A stretch of DNA of 64,000 nucleotides. Source: Elusimicrobium minutum Pei191 (GTDB taxonomy: Bacteria > Elusimicrobiota > Elusimicrobia > Elusimicrobiales > Elusimicrobiaceae). The translations under genes and the position numbers were made by a program. Under the pieces are notes generated by a model. The model was not told the DNA's origin. It saw only the letters and a list, made by a program, of their open reading frames with translations, and did no database searches. Below, piece by piece: positions 7,971 through 19,587 of this stretch (the first letter of the stretch is position 1; each line of letters begins with the position of its first letter). The DNA is taken from positions 248,001 through 312,000 of the forward strand of contig NC_010644.1 in the NCBI RefSeq assembly GCF_000020145.1, written 5' to 3'.

Positions 7971-8804
7971 ATGAAAAAAATAATTATATTAATTGTTTTT
8001 ATTTGTGTCGTTACCGCGGGTTACGCGCAAAATTATTATTCAACAAGGTACCACAATAAATATTATTATGAGGAGGACGTTCATCCATACCGTTTGAGCG
8101 ATCCTTTTTACATTCAAGACTTGGGTGTTATTGTTCTGGATACGACAGGGTGGGTTGGCAGGAATATACACGGCGATAAAGAAAGAAGATATGTCGCCAA
8201 CCAGACATTAACTTTGGGTCTGGCTGACTGGTTTGTTTTAGGCGGCGGTATAAGCTATAAAAAGTATGACACTTTGCGCAACGGCAAGAATGAAAAAATT
8301 AAAGGGTTTCTTAACCCCTACGCCTTAGCTAAAATAAGGTTTTTAGATAAGCTCTTTAAAATAGATTTGCTGGGCAAAGTTACGTTTGACGCGTTTGACA
8401 CTGTTGCCGAAGGCGGTATAGAATCAGGCACTCAAAAATACGAAGGGGAACTTTTGGCAGGCCCGAAATTTGAGAAACTTTCAATAGGCGCTAAAGCAAT
8501 GTACGGATATTGGCGTAAAGGAACCGAAATTATAAACCCGGATAAAAATTATCAGTCAAACGTTGGCGGCGGAGCGATTGTTTCCGTAAGGCCGTTAAGT
8601 TTTTTTGATTTCGGCGGGGAAGCGGGATATATAGTTTACGATGTTGCTGAAACAAAAGATGAAAAAGAATTTTACTTTTCATTAAACGCGAATTTTGAGA
8701 TTATAAAAGGCATTGTGCTTTTAGGCGCCTTTTATGATTTTCATAATCTTTCAAAAAATGAAGACTACCAGAATTTGGGTATACGATTTAAAGTAGCTAT
8801 TTAA
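7971..8804 (+). CDS. Predicted outer-membrane beta-barrel protein
   Basis: A 277-residue protein with a cleavable signal peptide (residues 1-20, ending GYAQ) and a body of alternating hydrophobic/polar strands rich in Tyr, Gly and Phe, ending in an aromatic-rich strand (YQNLGIRFKVAI). This pattern suggests an outer-membrane barrel of about 10-12 strands. I do not recognise a named family. It starts 8 bp after pilD with a GGAGAG ribosome-binding site, so it may be the last gene of the pilD operon; a strong terminator follows it. The next gene encodes another barrel-like protein but shares no obvious sequence with it. Confidence 0.6.
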   Translation: MKKIIILIVFICVVTAGYAQNYYSTRYHNKYYYEEDVHPYRLSDPFYIQDLGVIVLDTTGWVGRNIHGDKERRYVANQTLTLGLADWFVLGGGISYKKYDTLRNGKNEKIKGFLNPYALAKIRFLDKLFKIDLLGKVTFDAFDTVAEGGIESGTQKYEGELLAGPKFEKLSIGAKAMYGYWRKGTEIINPDKNYQSNVGGGAIVSVRPLSFFDFGGEAGYIVYDVAETKDEKEFYFSLNANFEIIKGIVLLGAFYDFHNLSKNEDYQNLGIRFKVAI

Positions 8805-13118: not shown

Positions 13119-16100
13119 ATGCAAAAAAATATAAATACCAAACAAAATCATATATATATTAAACAAGCTCAAAAAATAAAGGAAAAACTAGGGGATAAAC
13201 CTTATCGCATAGGCTTGGATTTGGGCGTGGGGTCTATAGGTTTTGCAATAGTTTCCATGGAAGAAAACGATGGTAATGTCTTATTGCCGAAAGAAATAAT
13301 AATGGTAGGAAGCAGGATTTTCAAAGCGTCCGCCGGGGCGGCAGATAGGAAATTATCACGAGGGCAAAGGAATAATCACAGGCACACCCGAGAAAGAATG
13401 CGGTATTTGTGGAAAGTTCTGGCGGAACAAAAATTAGCTTTGCCAGTTCCTGCCGATTTGGATAGGAAAGAAAACTCTTCAGAAGGGGAAACGTCAGCCA
13501 AACGATTTTTGGGAGACGTTTTGCAGAAAGATATATATGAGTTGAGAGTAAAATCTCTTGATGAAAGGCTTTCTTTACAGGAACTGGGCTATGTTTTATA
13601 TCATATTGCAGGGCACAGAGGCTCGTCTGCCATAAGAACTTTTGAGAATGATTCAGAGGAAGCCCAAAAAGAAAATACCGAAAATAAAAAAATAGCAGGA
13701 AACATAAAAAGATTGATGGCAAAAAAGAATTATAGAACATACGGCGAGTATCTATATAAAGAATTTTTTGAAAACAAAGAAAAACATAAGCGGGAAAAAA
13801 TAAGCAACGCAGCGAATAATCATAAATTCTCCCCCACAAGGGATTTGGTGATTAAAGAAGCGGAGGCTATATTAAAAAAACAAGCCGGGAAGGATGGTTT
13901 TCATAAAGAATTAACAGAAGAATATATTGAAAAGCTTACAAAAGCAATTGGTTATGAGTCGGAAAAACTAATCCCGGAAAGTGGTTTCTGCCCTTATTTA
14001 AAAGACGAAAAACGCTTGCCTGCATCTCATAAATTAAATGAAGAACGCAGACTTTGGGAAACACTAAACAACGCAAGATACTCTGACCCCATAGTTGATA
14101 TAGTAACGGGCGAAATTACAGGATATTACGAAAAGCAATTCACCAAAGAACAAAAGCAAAAACTGTTTGATTATCTGTTAACCGGGAGTGAACTTACGCC
14201 GGCCCAAACAAAAAAACTGCTTGGGCTAAAAAATACAAACTTCGAAGATATCATTTTACAAGGCAGAGATAAAAAAGCACAAAAAATAAAAGGTTATAAA
14301 TTAATCAAATTGGAAAGCATGCCCTTCTGGGCAAGATTATCTGAGGCGCAGCAAGACAGTTTCCTTTACGATTGGAACTCCTGCCCTGATGAAAAACTGT
14401 TGACCGAAAAACTTTCAAACGAATATCACTTAACAGAGGAAGAAATCGATAATGCGTTTAATGAAATTGTATTGTCTTCTTCCTACGCGCCGCTTGGCAA
14501 GAGTGCCATGCTCATAATTTTAGAAAAAATTAAAAATGATTTATCTTATACGGAAGCTGTGGAAGAAGCCTTAAAAGAAGGAAAATTAACCAAAGAAAAA
14601 CAAGCGATAAAAGACAGGCTACCATATTATGGCGCGGTACTCCAGGAAAGCACGCAAAAAATAATTGCAAAAGGCTTCTCCCCGCAATTTAAAGATAAAG
14701 GCTATAAAACCCCACATACAAATAAATATGAACTGGAGTATGGGAGGATAGCCAATCCCGTCGTTCACCAAACTTTGAATGAACTTCGCAAATTGGTTAA
14801 TGAAATTATAGATATTTTAGGGAAGAAACCCTGCGAAATAGGTCTGGAAACCGCCAGAGAACTAAAAAAATCCGCCGAAGACAGGTCGAAACTTAGCCGT
14901 GAGCAAAACGATAATGAAAGCAACAGAAATAGAATTTATGAAATTTATATAAGACCTCAGCAGCAGGTGATAATTACAAGAAGAGAAAACCCACGAAATT
15001 ATATTTTGAAATTTGAATTATTGGAGGAACAAAAAAGCCAATGCCCATTTTGTGGGGGACAAATAAGCCCTAATGATATTATTAATAACCAAGCCGATAT
15101 AGAACACTTATTCCCCATTGCCGAAAGCGAAGACAACGGCAGGAATAACCTTGTAATTTCCCACAGCGCTTGCAATGCCGATAAGGCAAAACGTTCCCCG
15201 TGGGCCGCGTTTGCTTCGGCAGCAAAAGACAGCAAGTATGACTATAACAGAATACTTTCTAATGTAAAAGAAAACATTCCGCATAAAGCATGGCGTTTTA
15301 ATCAGGGTGCTTTTGAAAAGTTTATAGAAAATAAACCAATGGCTGCCAGGTTTAAAACGGATAACTCTTATATTTCAAAAGTCGCGCATAAATATCTTGC
15401 CTGTTTGTTTGAAAAGCCCAATATAATCTGCGTAAAAGGCTCTCTAACAGCGCAGTTACGTATGGCGTGGGGACTGCAGGGGTTAATGATACCTTTTGCC
15501 AAACAGCTGATTACCGAGAAAGAGTCGGAGAGCTTTAATAAGGATGTAAACAGCAATAAAAAAATAAGACTGGACAACAGACATCACGCGTTAGACGCTA
15601 TCGTTATCGCGTACGCTTCGAGAGGATACGGCAATCTGCTAAATAAAATGGCCGGTAAGGATTATAAAATTAATTATAGCGAGCGCAATTGGCTTTCTAA
15701 AATTTTATTACCTCCTAATAATATTGTCTGGGAAAATATTGATGCTGATTTAGAAAGTTTTGAGAGTTCGGTAAAAACTGCGCTTAAAAACGCCTTTATC
15801 AGTGTTAAACATGACCATAGTGATAACGGCGAGCTTGTAAAAGGAACTATGTATAAAATTTTCTACTCGGAAAGGGGATATACTTTAACAACATATAAAA
15901 AATTAAGTGCTTTAAAATTAACAGATCCCCAAAAGAAGAAAACCCCGAAAGATTTTTTAGAAACGGCTCTTTTAAAATTTAAAGGCAGAGAGAGTGAGAT
16001 GAAAAATGAGAAAATAAAATCTGCCATTGAGAATAATAAAAGATTATTTGATGTTATACAAGATAACTTGGAAAAAGCGAAAAAGCTTCTGGAAGAAGAA

Positions 16101-16706
16101 AATGAAAAGTCAAAGGCGGAAGGAAAAAAAGAAAAGAATATTAATGATGCGAGTATATATCAAAAAGCTATTTCTTTATCCGGCGATAAATATGTGCAGC
16201 TTTCCAAGAAAGAGCCCGGTAAATTTTTTGCTATTTCTAAGCCCACGCCTACAACTACCGGATACGGTTACGATACGGGCGACAGTTTATGCGTGGATTT
16301 ATATTATGATAATAAAGGCAAACTCTGCGGAGAAATTATAAGGAAAATTGACGCACAGCAAAAGAACCCTTTGAAATATAAAGAACAGGGATTTACTTTG
16401 TTTGAAAGGATTTATGGCGGGGATATTTTAGAGGTTGATTTTGATATCCACAGTGATAAAAACTCTTTTAGAAACAATACCGGCTCTGCGCCAGAAAATA
16501 GAGTTTTTATTAAAGTGGGAACATTTACCGAAATTACAAATAACAATATTCAAATATGGTTTGGCAATATAATAAAAAGTACCGGCGGGCAGGATGATTC
16601 ATTTACTATAAACTCAATGCAGCAATACAATCCCCGTAAGCTTATTTTAAGTTCTTGCGGATTTATAAAATATCGTTCGCCGATATTAAAAAATAAAGAA
16701 GGTTAA
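13119..16706 (+). CDS. cas9: CRISPR-associated endonuclease Cas9 (type II-C)
   Basis: A 1195-residue RNA-guided DNA endonuclease. RuvC-I holds Asp34 (IGLDLGVGSIG); an Arg-rich bridge helix follows at about 78-105 (KLSRGQRNNHRHTRERMRYL); RuvC-II has Glu577 (LETARE); the HNH domain has His663 (DIEHLFP) and Asn686, preceded by a Cys pair (CPFC); RuvC-III has His823 and Asp826 (NRHHALDA). All catalytic residues are present, so both strands of a target should be cut. The N-terminus is about 25 residues longer than usual before RuvC-I, and the C-terminal WED/PAM-interacting part has a Lys/Glu-rich helical stretch near 960-1015. The ATG follows GGCGGGGG. cas1 begins 2 bp after the stop. No csn2 or cas4 is present, which together with gene order gives type II-C. 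Confidence 0.97.
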   Translation: MQKNINTKQNHIYIKQAQKIKEKLGDKPYRIGLDLGVGSIGFAIVSMEENDGNVLLPKEIIMVGSRIFKASAGAADRKLSRGQRNNHRHTRERMRYLWKVLAEQKLALPVPADLDRKENSSEGETSAKRFLGDVLQKDIYELRVKSLDERLSLQELGYVLYHIAGHRGSSAIRTFENDSEEAQKENTENKKIAGNIKRLMAKKNYRTYGEYLYKEFFENKEKHKREKISNAANNHKFSPTRDLVIKEAEAILKKQAGKDGFHKELTEEYIEKLTKAIGYESEKLIPESGFCPYLKDEKRLPASHKLNEERRLWETLNNARYSDPIVDIVTGEITGYYEKQFTKEQKQKLFDYLLTGSELTPAQTKKLLGLKNTNFEDIILQGRDKKAQKIKGYKLIKLESMPFWARLSEAQQDSFLYDWNSCPDEKLLTEKLSNEYHLTEEEIDNAFNEIVLSSSYAPLGKSAMLIILEKIKNDLSYTEAVEEALKEGKLTKEKQAIKDRLPYYGAVLQESTQKIIAKGFSPQFKDKGYKTPHTNKYELEYGRIANPVVHQTLNELRKLVNEIIDILGKKPCEIGLETARELKKSAEDRSKLSREQNDNESNRNRIYEIYIRPQQQVIITRRENPRNYILKFELLEEQKSQCPFCGGQISPNDIINNQADIEHLFPIAESEDNGRNNLVISHSACNADKAKRSPWAAFASAAKDSKYDYNRILSNVKENIPHKAWRFNQGAFEKFIENKPMAARFKTDNSYISKVAHKYLACLFEKPNIICVKGSLTAQLRMAWGLQGLMIPFAKQLITEKESESFNKDVNSNKKIRLDNRHHALDAIVIAYASRGYGNLLNKMAGKDYKINYSERNWLSKILLPPNNIVWENIDADLESFESSVKTALKNAFISVKHDHSDNGELVKGTMYKIFYSERGYTLTTYKKLSALKLTDPQKKKTPKDFLETALLKFKGRESEMKNEKIKSAIENNKRLFDVIQDNLEKAKKLLEEENEKSKAEGKKEKNINDASIYQKAISLSGDKYVQLSKKEPGKFFAISKPTPTTTGYGYDTGDSLCVDLYYDNKGKLCGEIIRKIDAQQKNPLKYKEQGFTLFERIYGGDILEVDFDIHSDKNSFRNNTGSAPENRVFIKVGTFTEITNNNIQIWFGNIIKSTGGQDDSFTINSMQQYNPRKLILSSCGFIKYRSPILKNKEG

Positions 16707-16708
16707 AA

Positions 16709-17605
16709 ATGTGGCGAGTTTTGGATATCCCCGGGGACGGGTACCATTTATGCGTAAAAAACAATAACTTCTCCGCAGTAAAAGACAGAGAGGAAAAACT
16801 GCATTGTTTATTTGACGATATAAACAGCATTATACTTTACGGTAATAATATTACCATTTCCAATACTTGCATACAAAAATGTTTAGAGCATAAAGTACCG
16901 GTCATCTTCTGCGATAAAACCTATAACCCCGCCGGAATGCTGCTTTCTTCTTTTACCACAAATATTTACGGACGCAGACTCCAGTTACAAATAAATGCCT
17001 CAAAACCACAAATAAAACAAGCCTGGCAACAAATAATCACAAGTAAGTTAAACAACCAAGCTGAGGTGTTAAAAAGATTTGACACGCTTAAGGCGGCGGA
17101 AACCATTTTTAATATGGCCCGCGAGGTGCGCTCTGGCGATGCTACTTTTAAAGAAGGTGTCGGCGCAAAGGTATATTTTGAAAATTTATTTAATGATTTT
17201 CATAGAAATACCGACGATAAGGATATTATAAATTCAGCGTTAAATTATGGCTATGCGATTGTTAGAAGTTCTATTGCGCGGGCGGTTGTTTCCGCCGGAT
17301 TAAATCCCGCCATCGGTATTTTCCACAGTAAGAACCATAATCCGTTTTGTTTAATAGATGATTTGATAGAACCACTGCGTCCTCTTATAGATTTTATGGT
17401 AAAAAATAAATTGGATGTTTTGACGCAAGAGGAAAGTCTGTCGCCTTCGGCTAAAAAATATATGGCAAGCGTGATAGAAAGTAACTTGTATTTTGAGGAT
17501 GGTGCCTTTAATCTTACGGCCGGGATACAAAAATATATCCAGTCGTATATCGCGTTTTTGGAAGAACGGGAAAACAGGATAATTTTCCCGGCAATTTTAA
17601 AATGA
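16709..17605 (+). CDS. cas1: CRISPR integrase Cas1
   Basis: A 298-residue Cas1 that, with Cas2, inserts new spacers at the leader end of the array. The metal-binding residues are Glu149 (FKEGVGAKVYF), His206 (IFHSKNHNPF) and Glu221 (LIEPLRP), at the canonical positions for the type II family, with the beta-rich N-terminal domain (1-85) before them. The gene starts 2 bp after cas9 and its stop overlaps the cas2 start by 4 bp (ATGA), so all three cas genes form one translationally coupled operon. Nothing suggests inactivation. Confidence 0.96.
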   Translation: MWRVLDIPGDGYHLCVKNNNFSAVKDREEKLHCLFDDINSIILYGNNITISNTCIQKCLEHKVPVIFCDKTYNPAGMLLSSFTTNIYGRRLQLQINASKPQIKQAWQQIITSKLNNQAEVLKRFDTLKAAETIFNMAREVRSGDATFKEGVGAKVYFENLFNDFHRNTDDKDIINSALNYGYAIVRSSIARAVVSAGLNPAIGIFHSKNHNPFCLIDDLIEPLRPLIDFMVKNKLDVLTQEESLSPSAKKYMASVIESNLYFEDGAFNLTAGIQKYIQSYIAFLEERENRIIFPAILK

Positions 17606-17928
17606 TTTCACCTTATAAAACAATGTGGATTTTAATAGCCTTTGACCTTCCTGTAAAAACAAAAACCCAAATGAGAATTGCCAATAAATTTAGGCAAACG
17701 CTTAAAAATTCCGGTTTTATCATGCTGCAAAAATCTATTTACAGTTACTATGCTTTCAGCAAAGAAAGATGCGACATTATTGAAAAACAAATAAAGCAGA
17801 TAGTACCCGATAATGGACACATCTGCTTTTTATTTTTTACGGACAGAATGTTTAAAATGACAAAACATTTTTACGGCAGGTTGAAAGTACAGGCCGAGCG
17901 GCCAGACTTTTTTGATACTCTTCTTTAA
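17602..17928 (+). CDS. cas2: CRISPR adaptation protein Cas2
   Basis: A 108-residue Cas2. The ferredoxin-like fold starts with WILIAFDLPVKTK, where Asp15 is the conserved acidic residue, and contains the LQKSIYSYYAFSKE strand-helix unit. Cas2 dimers bridge two Cas1 dimers during spacer acquisition. Its ATG overlaps the cas1 stop. Downstream, about 210 bp separate it from the CRISPR array; that gap carries the candidate tracrRNA on the opposite strand. Confidence 0.95.
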   Translation: MISPYKTMWILIAFDLPVKTKTQMRIANKFRQTLKNSGFIMLQKSIYSYYAFSKERCDIIEKQIKQIVPDNGHICFLFFTDRMFKMTKHFYGRLKVQAERPDFFDTLL

Positions 17929-17977
17929 ATTGAGGCTGGCTCCAATCGCCTTCTCGCCAATTTTTTAATACTTTACT

Positions 17978-18082
17978 AAAAAACTTCTTTGAACCAGTAA
18001 GCTGGCATTTTACGAAAAAACTCTTATTAGAGTTGCCCATTTTTTAAAAAATTTCTTAAAAATCCCCGAGATTTTAACTATA
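17978..18082 (-). ncRNA. Candidate tracrRNA with split anti-repeat
   Basis: Read on the minus strand (same direction as the crRNAs), 18038-18026 gives GGGCAACTCTAAT, which pairs with the first 13 nt of the CRISPR repeat with only two G-U wobbles. Upstream, 18073-18066 gives AATCTCGG, complementary to the next part of the repeat (CCGAGA.TT). The two blocks are separated by a 27-nt AT-rich insert with its own small palindrome. Downstream are a hairpin AACTCT/AGAGTT followed by T residues, a second hairpin GCCAG/CTGGT, and a T6 run at 17983-17978. Location between cas2 and the array, strand and complementarity all fit a tracrRNA. The ends are estimates. The first hairpin overlaps the anti-repeat, so hairpin and crRNA pairing exclude each other. 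Confidence 0.55.
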
Positions 18083-18139
18083 TTTTAGTATTTTTTATAA
18101 AAAATAATTTAATTTTTTATACGGAAAATTGAGTTTAAT

Positions 18140-18175
18140 ATTCTATAAAATCAATTCTCGGAGGGCAACCCTAAC
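18140..18175 (-). promoter_or_regulatory. Promoter-like sequence embedded in each CRISPR repeat (shown for the leader-distal repeat)
   Basis: In crRNA orientation the 36-bp repeat has TTGCCC at positions 8-13 and TAGAAT at positions 31-36, 17 bp apart, so a sigma-70-type promoter ends exactly at the repeat/spacer boundary. Transcripts would start about 7 nt into the spacer. In this last repeat the promoter would instead fire toward the candidate tracrRNA about 50 bp away. Confidence 0.5.
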
Positions 18176-19032
18176 CCTTTATTTCGGAGTACGGTGACAC
18201 TATAATTCTATAAAATCAATTCTCGGAGGGCAACCCTAACATATTGTCCGCGGCAAAGGCAACCCGGAAAATTCTATAAAATCAATTCTCGGAGGGCAAC
18301 CCTAACTCTGCTGCTCCTTATACATATCCAAATATTATTCTATAAAATCAATTCTCGGAGGGCAACCCTAACGCAAAAGTGTAATGGTCGCCGGAATTAA
18401 CCATTCTATAAAATCAATTCTCGGAGGGCAACCCTAACACAATTACAGTATAACATTGACAGAACAACATTCTATAAAATCAATTCTCGGAGGGCAACCC
18501 TAACCTCTTATAGCATATATCCCCAACACCACTCATTCTATAAAATCAATTCTCGGAGGGCAACCCTAACAGGAACGAATCCAAAAACAGAACCAGGACT
18601 ATTCTATAAAATCAATTCTCGGAGGGCAACCCTAACCTTAACGCCGGGCATATATTGTATTTCGTTATTCTATAAAATCAATTCTCGGAGGGCAACCCTA
18701 ACATTAGTTACTGCATACACAACAGAAGATTTATTCTATAAAATCAATTCTCGGAGGGCAACCCTAACATGTAATCTTCCCTATATCGTCGCTTCAAAAT
18801 TCTATAAAATCAATTCTCGGAGGGCAACCCTAACTCAAGGCTTAGAGGTATGGGAACTGGTTTTATTCTATAAATTCAATTCTCGGAGGGCAACCCTAAC
18901 AGGGTATTGCTGTCTAAAGAGAGTGAAGACATTCTATAAAATCAATTCTCGGAGGGCAACCCTAACGAGTCAATAACTTGATATTGTACTCACAACATTC
19001 TATAAAATCAATTCTCGGAGGGCAACCCTAAC
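18140..19032 (-). CRISPR. Type II-C CRISPR array: 14 repeats of 36 bp, 13 spacers
   Basis: Fourteen 36-bp repeats start at 18140, 18205, 18271, then every 66 bp to 18997. On the minus strand the repeat begins GTTAGGGTTGCCC and ends TTTTATAGAAT. Spacers are 30 bp except the one next to repeat 1, which is 29 bp. All repeats are identical except the one at 18865-18900, which has one A-to-T change. Orientation is minus: the repeat begins with GTT like other type II repeats, the embedded promoter and the flanking leader promoter both point that way, and the anti-repeat is on the same strand. The newest spacer should therefore be the one at 18967-18996. I could not match any spacer to other sequence in the window. 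Confidence 0.98.
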
Positions 19033-19055
19033 CTTGGTACCGTGCACCGTTAATG

Positions 19056-19084
19056 AATATAGAATATCTCTTAACCGTTTTCAA
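19056..19084 (-). promoter_or_regulatory. CRISPR leader promoter
   Basis: On the minus strand TTGAAA (19084-19079) and TATATT (19061-19056) are exactly 17 bp apart. Transcription would start near 19049, about 17 bp before the first repeat at 19032. This supports the right-hand flank as the leader and transcription toward the cas genes. Confidence 0.6.
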
Positions 19085-19094
19085 CGTTTAATAA

Positions 19095-19313
19095 ACTTTC
19101 GCTACAGCCTTTAGCAAAAACTTAAGACATGTTAATCGTATGATTTTAGAAAACGGGTCAGACACTCCGCGCTTACAAGGCACTTTTAGAATGCTGTGCA
19201 AAACAAGCGTTACTCAAACAATGGTTCGTAGCGTTGACATAAAAGATGCTTCTCTTTATGCAGGGCATGCCAGTAAACAGGTGACAGAAGACATTATTTA
19301 TCCAAAGAAGTAA
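19095..19313 (+). pseudogene. Remnant of a tyrosine recombinase/integrase (C-terminal end)
   Basis: An open frame of about 72 codons from just after an in-frame stop (19092) to TAA 19313; the only ATG is at 19140. Its end, LYAGHASKQVTEDIIYPKK, resembles the GHxS...T..Y box of tyrosine recombinases (His of the catalytic set and the Tyr nucleophile), and the part before it could be the R..C/H..T region. The N-terminal two thirds of an integrase are missing. It lies between the CRISPR leader and tRNA-Ser, a usual place for a decayed island integrase. The identification rests on a short motif, so confidence is moderate. Confidence 0.4.
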
Positions 19314-19501: not shown

Positions 19502-19587
19502 CGGAAAGGGAGGGATTCGAACCCTCGATACCTTTAGGGTATACAGTCTTTCCAGGACTGCGCCTTAAACCGCTCGGCCACCTTTCC
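19502..19587 (-). tRNA. tRNA-Ser (anticodon GGA)
   Basis: Minus-strand class II tRNA: acceptor GGAAAGG/CCTTTCC, discriminator G, anticodon stem CAGTC/GACTG with loop CTGGAAA (anticodon GGA, reads UCC/UCU), a long variable arm (TATACCC ... GGTATC) and T loop TTCGAAT. CCA is not encoded. Its 3' end faces the CRISPR-bearing accessory region, with an integrase remnant nearby. Confidence 0.95.

What the first reader, a model, noticed from the sequence alone, without database searches (positions are those of the whole stretch)
17975..18139. Candidate tracrRNA with an anti-repeat split by a 27-nt AT-rich insert
GGGCAACTCTAAT (18038-18026, minus) pairs with the first 13 nt of the repeat with two G-U pairs; AATCTCGG (18073-18066) pairs with the following part; between them lie 27 nt including a 14-bp AT palindrome. 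Known tracrRNAs usually pair along the repeat with only small bulges. In addition the hairpin AACTCT/AGAGTT with T run overlaps the anti-repeat, so free tracrRNA could terminate or fold early while crRNA pairing would open it.
Basis: partly seen in the sequence, partly recalled or inferred. Interest (0 to 1): 0.62.

Follow-up and report, generated by a model that had tools for sequence, protein, structure and literature searches.

The report
CRISPR-Cas9 tracrRNA with short anti-repeat
This is the helper RNA gene (tracrRNA) of an ordinary Cas9 immune system in a bacterium; the gene is real and conserved, but the idea that its pairing region works in two separated pieces is only weakly supported.

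Summary
The window holds a type II-C CRISPR-Cas locus (cas9-cas1-cas2, then 14 repeats). On the minus strand, 101 nt beyond the last repeat, lies a real tracrRNA gene. A 50-nt core (anti-repeat GGGCAACTCTAAT, AAGA..TTCGYAARATGC linker, compensating hairpin) recurs, in the same place and strand, in 9 of 14 Elusimicrobiota genomes with a close Cas9; in the other five the contig ends inside cas9 (3) or the locus is broken (2). In one relative a repeat change (G10 to C) is matched by C to G in both its anti-repeat copies. The core occurs once in the host genome.

The claimed split is much weaker. The distal piece (AATCTCGG) needs a bulge, is not conserved in the two nearest relatives, and falls where they carry a -35-like TTG box; in several loci the best sigma-70-like start lies at the anti-repeat's first base. 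However, co-folding tests with controls find more distal complementarity than chance in three or four of nine copies (strongest G037 and G127, borderline here). I read the window as a minimal 13-bp anti-repeat, with the AT-rich 'insert' as promoter or leader and the distal piece as a possible remnant. A transcribed split duplex is not excluded (about 0.2).

The parts
18026..18038 (-). Anti-repeat GGGCAACTCTAAT, pairs with repeat nt 1-13
   Evidence: 13 pairs, two G-U; conserved in 10 copies; compensatory change in G303
17978..18038 (-). Predicted short tracrRNA (about 61 nt); the 3' end at the U-run 17978-17983 is inferred
   Evidence: Covariance model R1 hit G000:C1:265990-266038, E 3e-17, only hit in own genome; among the three closest loci the U-run is in window and G261 only
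18007..18025 (-). Conserved linker AAGA..TTCGTAAAAT (nexus-like stretch)
   Evidence: Invariant AAGA, TCG, AA, ATGC columns in 10 copies
17993..18006 (-). tracrRNA hairpin GCCAG-CTTA-CTGGT
   Evidence: 5 pairs, 50 of 50 cells paired, two pairs with compensatory changes
18039..18065 (-). AT-rich 27-nt 'insert': candidate tracrRNA promoter/leader; could fold as a 9-bp AT hairpin if transcribed
   Evidence: TCGGGG-17-TAAAAA ties for best sigma-70-like score, start at +4 of the anti-repeat; co-fold hairpin
18066..18073 (-).
   Evidence: p 0.007 to 0.56 depending on test; not conserved in G293 and G261
18041..18069 (-). Candidate promoter of the short tracrRNA: -35 18069-18064, -10 18046-18041
   Evidence: score not above shuffles
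18140..19032 (-). CRISPR array, 14 repeats of 36 nt, spacers 30 nt (one 29); crRNA orientation minus: GTTAGGGTTGCCCTCCGAGAATTGATTTTATAGAAT
18140..18168 (-). sigma-70-like promoter TTGCCC-17-TAGAAT inside the last repeat, reads into the leader and tracrRNA (same site in all 14 repeats)
19056..19084 (-). Promoter-like TTGAAA-17-TATATT upstream of the array in crRNA orientation
13119..16706 (+). cas9 (1195 aa)
   Evidence: TIGR01865, 539.5 bits, cut-off 100; HNH_4 and RuvC_III
16709..17605 (+). cas1
   Evidence: TIGR03639 type II Cas1, 247.6 bits
17602..17928 (+). cas2
   Evidence: TIGR01573, 58.4 bits

Best explanation
The minus-strand segment 18038 to about 17978 is the tracrRNA gene of a type II-C CRISPR-Cas9 locus. 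Shown by sequence: it sits just past the last repeat on the crRNA strand, its first 13 nt pair with the first 13 nt of the repeat, and its core and hairpin are conserved with compensating changes in nine Elusimicrobiota genomes. Inferred: crRNAs are transcribed on the minus strand from promoters inside each repeat (TTGCCC-17-TAGAAT), as reported for C. jejuni. The tracrRNA starts at or near the anti-repeat from a promoter in the AT-rich 27 nt and/or is read from the last repeat's promoter. The 13-bp duplex supplies the part of the repeat that Cas9 holds, followed by the nexus-like linker and hairpin. In the window's own clade the firm anti-repeat is only 12-15 nt; the diverged sister clade has anti-repeats of about 18-20 pairs without a large insert. 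The distal AATCTCGG is most likely a remnant of, or chance resemblance to, a lost distal half and not a required part of the mature duplex.
For: Locus and array. Core in 10 copies of 9 genomes, all next to cas2 and the array side, E 3e-14 or better, next hit 4e-5 and not at a CRISPR locus (of 340 genomes). Alignment, hairpin covariation, G303 compensatory change. Gap last repeat to anti-repeat 101-117 nt in the 8 loci with a repeat. Contiguous pairing extended in G240, G127, G037. Both nearest relatives differ at the distal piece. Predicted start within 0-4 nt of the anti-repeat for the single best promoter in G293, G261, G312, G249 and a tied best in the window, 5 of 10 copies, versus 342 of 2000 shuffles within 6 nt. 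Per-repeat promoter site; C. jejuni precedent (PMC3656092, passages). Broken loci: G288 and G267 keep neither array nor core.
Against: No RNA data. Promoter scores do not exceed shuffles of these AT-rich leaders except in G303b, and the best start in G037, G127, G240, G303a and G303b is not at the anti-repeat. Co-fold permutation tests give p 0.001-0.007 for matched distal complementarity over the family, which a mere chance reading does not explain; it rests mainly on G037, G127 and the window. No consistent terminator after the hairpin across loci (sequences).
Confidence: 0.65

Rival explanations
1. Functional split duplex. A long tracrRNA, started at the last repeat's promoter or upstream of 18073, pairs repeat nt 1-13 with the proximal piece and nt 14-20 or more with the distal piece, while the insert folds into its own AT hairpin. 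The result is a three-way junction in which the crRNA side stays contiguous. The distal helix could give RNase III its substrate.
For: Window co-fold: repeat nt 1-20 paired without a gap, 9-bp insert hairpin, binding -22.4 versus -13.8 kcal/mol for the short form. G037: repeat nt 1-28 contiguous around a roughly 40-nt insert. Gain beyond the last 20 nt: G037 8.9 (0 of 300 shuffled distal halves reach it), window 6.9 (p 0.007), G127 6.2 (0.010), G303b 5.2 (0.023); sum over 8 loci 25.4 versus shuffled 4.0 sd 3.8, 0 of 300. Permutations p 0.001-0.007.
Against: No signal in G293, G303a, G312, G249 and, beyond the contiguous part, G240. In G261 the window's piece is not conserved; its repeat is unknown. 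Lost in G293 although its repeat keeps CCGAG. Simple duplex and alignment tests of the distal region alone are not significant (p 0.08-0.42). The reversed-half control also reaches p 0.011. Without G037 and G127 the permutation p is 0.13.
Confidence: 0.2
2. The tracrRNA is mainly a read-through product of the array, driven by the last repeat's internal promoter (start near 18134), with a roughly 100-nt 5' leader later trimmed. (Not exclusive with the best explanation.)
For: TTGCCC-17-TAGAAT ends at 18140 and points at the tracrRNA; the 101-117 nt gap is held in 8 loci; no terminator is listed between array and tracrRNA; in C. jejuni repeats carry promoters and the authors state that most TracrRNA species come from upstream promoters (PMC3656092, passages).
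Against: G303 has a second complete tracrRNA copy downstream of the first, which such a promoter would have to serve as well. Not testable without RNA.
Confidence: 0.3
3. Chance resemblance: no tracrRNA here, the real one lies elsewhere.
For: A 2-mismatch match to the 24-nt anti-repeat pattern exists at C1:1070500.
Against: Nine-genome conservation with covariation; pattern hits elsewhere are no more than the reversed-pattern control apart from the array; the 1070500 site lacks the AAGA/hairpin core.
Confidence: 0.03

Closest known systems
Campylobacter jejuni type II-C CRISPR-Cas9 (PMC3656092, passages read)
   Same: Three cas genes, promoters inside each repeat with the -10 at the repeat's 3' end, and a short tracrRNA (about 62 nt form in C. 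jejuni).
   Different: C. jejuni tracrRNA has a long uninterrupted anti-repeat (about 25 nt, recalled); here only 13 nt are firm. Core and hairpin sequences differ (recalled).
Type II-C loci in general (PMC12080349, passages read)
   Same: Each repeat with its own promoter; the first 15 nt of the repeat are the part that contacts Cas9 after processing.
   Different: That paper treats the extra repeat; no split anti-repeat was seen in the passages read.
Streptococcus pyogenes-type tracrRNA (type II-A)
   Same: Anti-repeat, nexus-like stretch, 3' hairpin (general scheme, recalled).
   Different: No Rfam family matched the region even at E 5; different locus type.

Membership tests
Type II-C CRISPR-Cas | cas9, cas1, cas2 only, next to a repeat array | tested here: met
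   no csn2 or cas4 match among the 7 proteins scanned
Type II-C CRISPR-Cas | Promoter within each repeat (as in C. jejuni) | tested here: inconclusive
   TTGCCC-17-TAGAAT in all 14 repeats; the -10 region is less regular in G127 and G303 repeats; no start sites measured
tracrRNA | Anti-repeat complementary to the repeat's 5' part, distinct from the array | tested here: met
tracrRNA | Conserved downstream structure (nexus/hairpins) | tested here: met
   one covarying hairpin, conserved linker; a nexus stem was not resolved
tracrRNA | Rho-independent terminator | tested here: inconclusive
   U-run in window and G261, not G293; none listed by the scan
tracrRNA | Expressed, binds Cas9 with crRNA | not testable with these tools
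   needs RNA sequencing or biochemistry
tracrRNA with functional split anti-repeat | Distal piece kept by covariation with the repeat at a homologous position | tested here: inconclusive
   matched signal in G037, G127, window and G303b, none in five other tested copies; lost in G293, where the repeat keeps CCGAG, and not conserved in G261
Rfam RNA families | Match in Rfam 15 | tested here: not met
   no match at E 5 or better in 17900-19100

The most novel reading that the evidence does not exclude
In part of this Elusimicrobiota Cas9 family the guide duplex is a three-way junction: the repeat pairs without a break to two anti-repeat segments that are separated in the tracrRNA by a 27-40-nt AT-rich hairpin, with the last repeat's promoter making the long tracrRNA.
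Probability: 0.18. Interest if true: 0.6.

Novelty: new member of a known kind. Interest (0 to 1): 0.32.

Why it matters
It gives a covariation-supported tracrRNA for a Cas9 family that Rfam does not cover, and with it the guide RNA needed to test these Cas9 proteins. If the split duplex were real it would show that a Cas9 guide tolerates a large hairpin inserted in the anti-repeat. If only the 13-bp form exists, it raises the question how crRNA 3' ends are made without the usual longer RNase III substrate.

Tried and rejected
Another tracrRNA elsewhere: wobble patterns over the own genome and model R1 over 340 genomes gave nothing better; the 2-mismatch hit at C1:1070500 was read and lacks the core.

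Early-termination hairpin AACTCT/AGAGTT: rejected as a conserved switch.

Distal piece, simple duplex and alignment tests over the family: not significant for the region upstream of -15 (p 0.08-0.42). Nt 14-24 with the adjacent region was significant by duplex energy (0.007), which I attribute to contiguous extension in G240, G127 and G037. G249's leader pairs with G127's repeat at -17.7 kcal/mol, about as strong as G037's own match (-18.3), and the window's leader pairs better with G293's repeat (-15.7) than with its own (-13.4).

Viral contigs: pattern GGGCAACTCTAAYAAGA gave 3 contigs, one shared stretch without the rest of the core; a Cas9 alignment scan found none. The genome-contig scan gave one locus, the same contig as G037.

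Weak model hits (E 4e-5 to 0.01, 14 places): six of the 3-kb loci were printed; no array or core was noticed there; taken as chance, not followed further.

Papers: searches for Elusimicrobium minutum + tracrRNA, Elusimicrobia + tracrRNA, Elusimicrobium + Cas9, and split/interrupted anti-repeat or tracrRNA-promoter terms found no report on this tracrRNA in the listings. The main tracrRNA survey (PMC3737331) is not held, so an earlier prediction may exist there.

Full report
WHAT IS THERE. The window is G000:C1:248001-312000 of a single-contig genome of 1,643,562 bases. The phylum is taken to be Elusimicrobiota: the relative G037 has a contig of 77,319 bases that matches DYIF01000008.1 in length, titled 'Elusimicrobium minutum' (lineage). 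From memory, the genome length is that of E. minutum Pei191; no call confirms it. The locus is cas9 (13119-16706), cas1 and cas2 on the plus strand, then 14 repeats of 36 nt, 18140-19032. No Rfam family other than tRNA reaches its gathering score in the window, and nothing at E 5 or better matches 17900-19100.

ORIENTATION. Read on the minus strand the repeat is GTTAGGGTTGCCCTCCGAGAATTGATTTTATAGAAT. Each copy holds TTGCCC-17-TAGAAT, 9 of 12 matches to the sigma-70 consensus (one site seen 14 times, not 14 independent findings). Among eight loci, repeat nt 1-13 are nearly invariant (only nt 10 varies, in 1 of 8), nt 34-36 are each the same in 7 of 8 and nt 31 in 6 of 8, while nt 14-16, 22-23 and 29-30 vary most. 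This resembles the promoter-in-repeat arrangement reported for C. jejuni (PMC3656092, passages).

THE TRACRRNA IS REAL. GGGCAACTCTAAT (18038-18026, minus) pairs with repeat nt 1-13. Cas9 relatives at E 1e-100 or better occur in 14 of 340 phylum genomes, the own one included. In nine of them the same core lies just beyond cas2 on the crRNA strand: window, G293, G261 (contig ends before the array), G303 (two tandem copies), G312, G249, G240, G127, G037. A covariance model of the 10 copies finds these and nothing comparable (worst member 3e-14, next hit 4e-5). The five genomes without it: G006, G281 and G287 have cas9 cut by the contig end; G288 has cas9 and cas1 in shifted frames and a truncated cas2, with no array detected; G267 has cas9 fragments only. 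The 3' hairpin is paired in 50 of 50 cells with two compensatory pairs. In G303 repeat nt 10 is C instead of G and both anti-repeat copies carry the matching G. The own genome has one copy.

HOW LONG IS THE ANTI-REPEAT. Contiguous pairing from repeat nt 1: window 13, G293 13, G312 13, G303a 12, G303b 15; G249 is irregular at nt 10-11 and its cas9 is frameshifted. In the other clade of the Cas9 tree (G127, G037, G240; 100/100 support) it is longer: G037 19 pairs, G127 18 with one bulge, G240 about 20 with an internal loop. So the window's clade has the shorter form. The first 15 nt of the repeat are the part that interacts with Cas9 after RNase III processing (PMC12080349, passages), so 13 pairs may suffice for Cas9 but leave little for RNase III (inference).

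THE CLAIMED SPLIT. The distal AATCTCGG needs a bulged A. The two nearest relatives (72 and 71% Cas9 identity) have TTTTGAGG and GTTTGTGG at the aligned position; G293's repeat still has CCGAG, so the pairing is lost there (G261's repeat is unknown). That position is where a -35-like TTG box sits in G293, G261, G312, G249 and G037. The single best sigma-70-like start is 0-4 nt from the anti-repeat's first base in four copies and tied best in the window (5 of 10; shuffles within 6 nt: 342 of 2000). Scores themselves are not above shuffles in nine of ten copies, so this is weak support for 'insert = promoter'.

TESTS IN FAVOUR OF A DISTAL PIECE. Simple tests are mixed: per-copy duplex p 0.048 (window), 0.70 (G293), 0.98 (G303a), 0.29 (G303b), 0.27 (G312), 0.71 (G249), 0.032 (G240), 0.028 (G127), 0 of 500 (G037); family permutation for the region upstream of -15 gave p 0.08-0.42. 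Co-folding the whole repeat with leader plus tracrRNA is more favourable. With only -80..-21 shuffled: window 0.057, G293 0.22, G303a 0.46, G303b 0.017, G312 0.20, G249 0.42, G240 0.69, G127 0.003, G037 0 of 300. Permuting distal halves among eight leaders gives p 0.0010-0.0073 over 16 settings, 0.0012-0.023 on dropping one locus, 0.13 without G037 and G127; a reversed-half control also reached 0.011 at half the size of the effect (12.2 versus 25.4). Shuffled distal halves: sum 25.4 against 4.0 sd 3.8, 0 of 300; window alone 0.007. In the window and in G037 the crRNA side would be paired without a skipped base across the insert (nt 1-20 and 1-28), with the insert folded as an AT hairpin. This is a genuine hint, resting on three or four of nine tested copies and found with tests refined after the first results. 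G261 was left out of these tests because its repeat is not assembled.

JUDGEMENT. The gene is an ordinary II-C tracrRNA in kind, without an Rfam match. Its most notable feature is the short anti-repeat. The distal piece may be a decaying remnant of the longer anti-repeat still seen in the sister clade, upstream of the start site. A transcribed split duplex is possible, more so in G037 and G127 than here.

LIMITS. Searches naming the organism or phylum with tracrRNA found no paper in the held library, but the main 2013 tracrRNA survey is not held.

Noticed in passing
L037:8121-8170 and 8239-8288 (minus): G303 carries two tandem complete tracrRNA copies about 118 nt apart, both with the compensatory G opposite repeat nt 10 C.
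   Followed up: partly
L008:11865-11905 (minus): G037's leader holds an inverted repeat, GAAATCGGATT ... AAGCCGGATTTC, one arm resembling the repeat's distal half and the other its complement.
   Followed up: partly
window:18039-18139: The gap between last repeat and anti-repeat is held at 101-117 nt in eight loci, although the leader sequence itself diverges; cause unknown (spacing for spacer acquisition or for the tracrRNA start?).
   Followed up: no
L039:7120-7165: G249 cas9 continues in another frame (aa 938-952 region), and its anti-repeat is mismatched at repeat nt 10-11: a decaying system or an assembly error.
   Followed up: partly
L042:2845-7304: G288 has cas9 and cas1 in shifted frames and cas2 cut after about 23 aa, no array and no tracrRNA core: a dead locus.
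   Followed up: partly
window:13119-16706: Close Cas9 relatives are rare in the host's own family (1 of 35 relatives, G006) but occur in a distant family of the phylum at higher identity (G293 72%), suggesting horizontal transfer.
   Followed up: no
window:19461-19628 (minus): A tRNA gene (19502-19587) with a TTAACG-16-TATAAT promoter-like site and a terminator-like hairpin just upstream of the array on the crRNA strand.
   Followed up: no
L010:3998-5674: G029 carries a different repeat family (GTTCCTATTAGGCACCAAAGAATAAGGTAGAATTTA) beside a distantly related Cas9-like protein.
   Followed up: no
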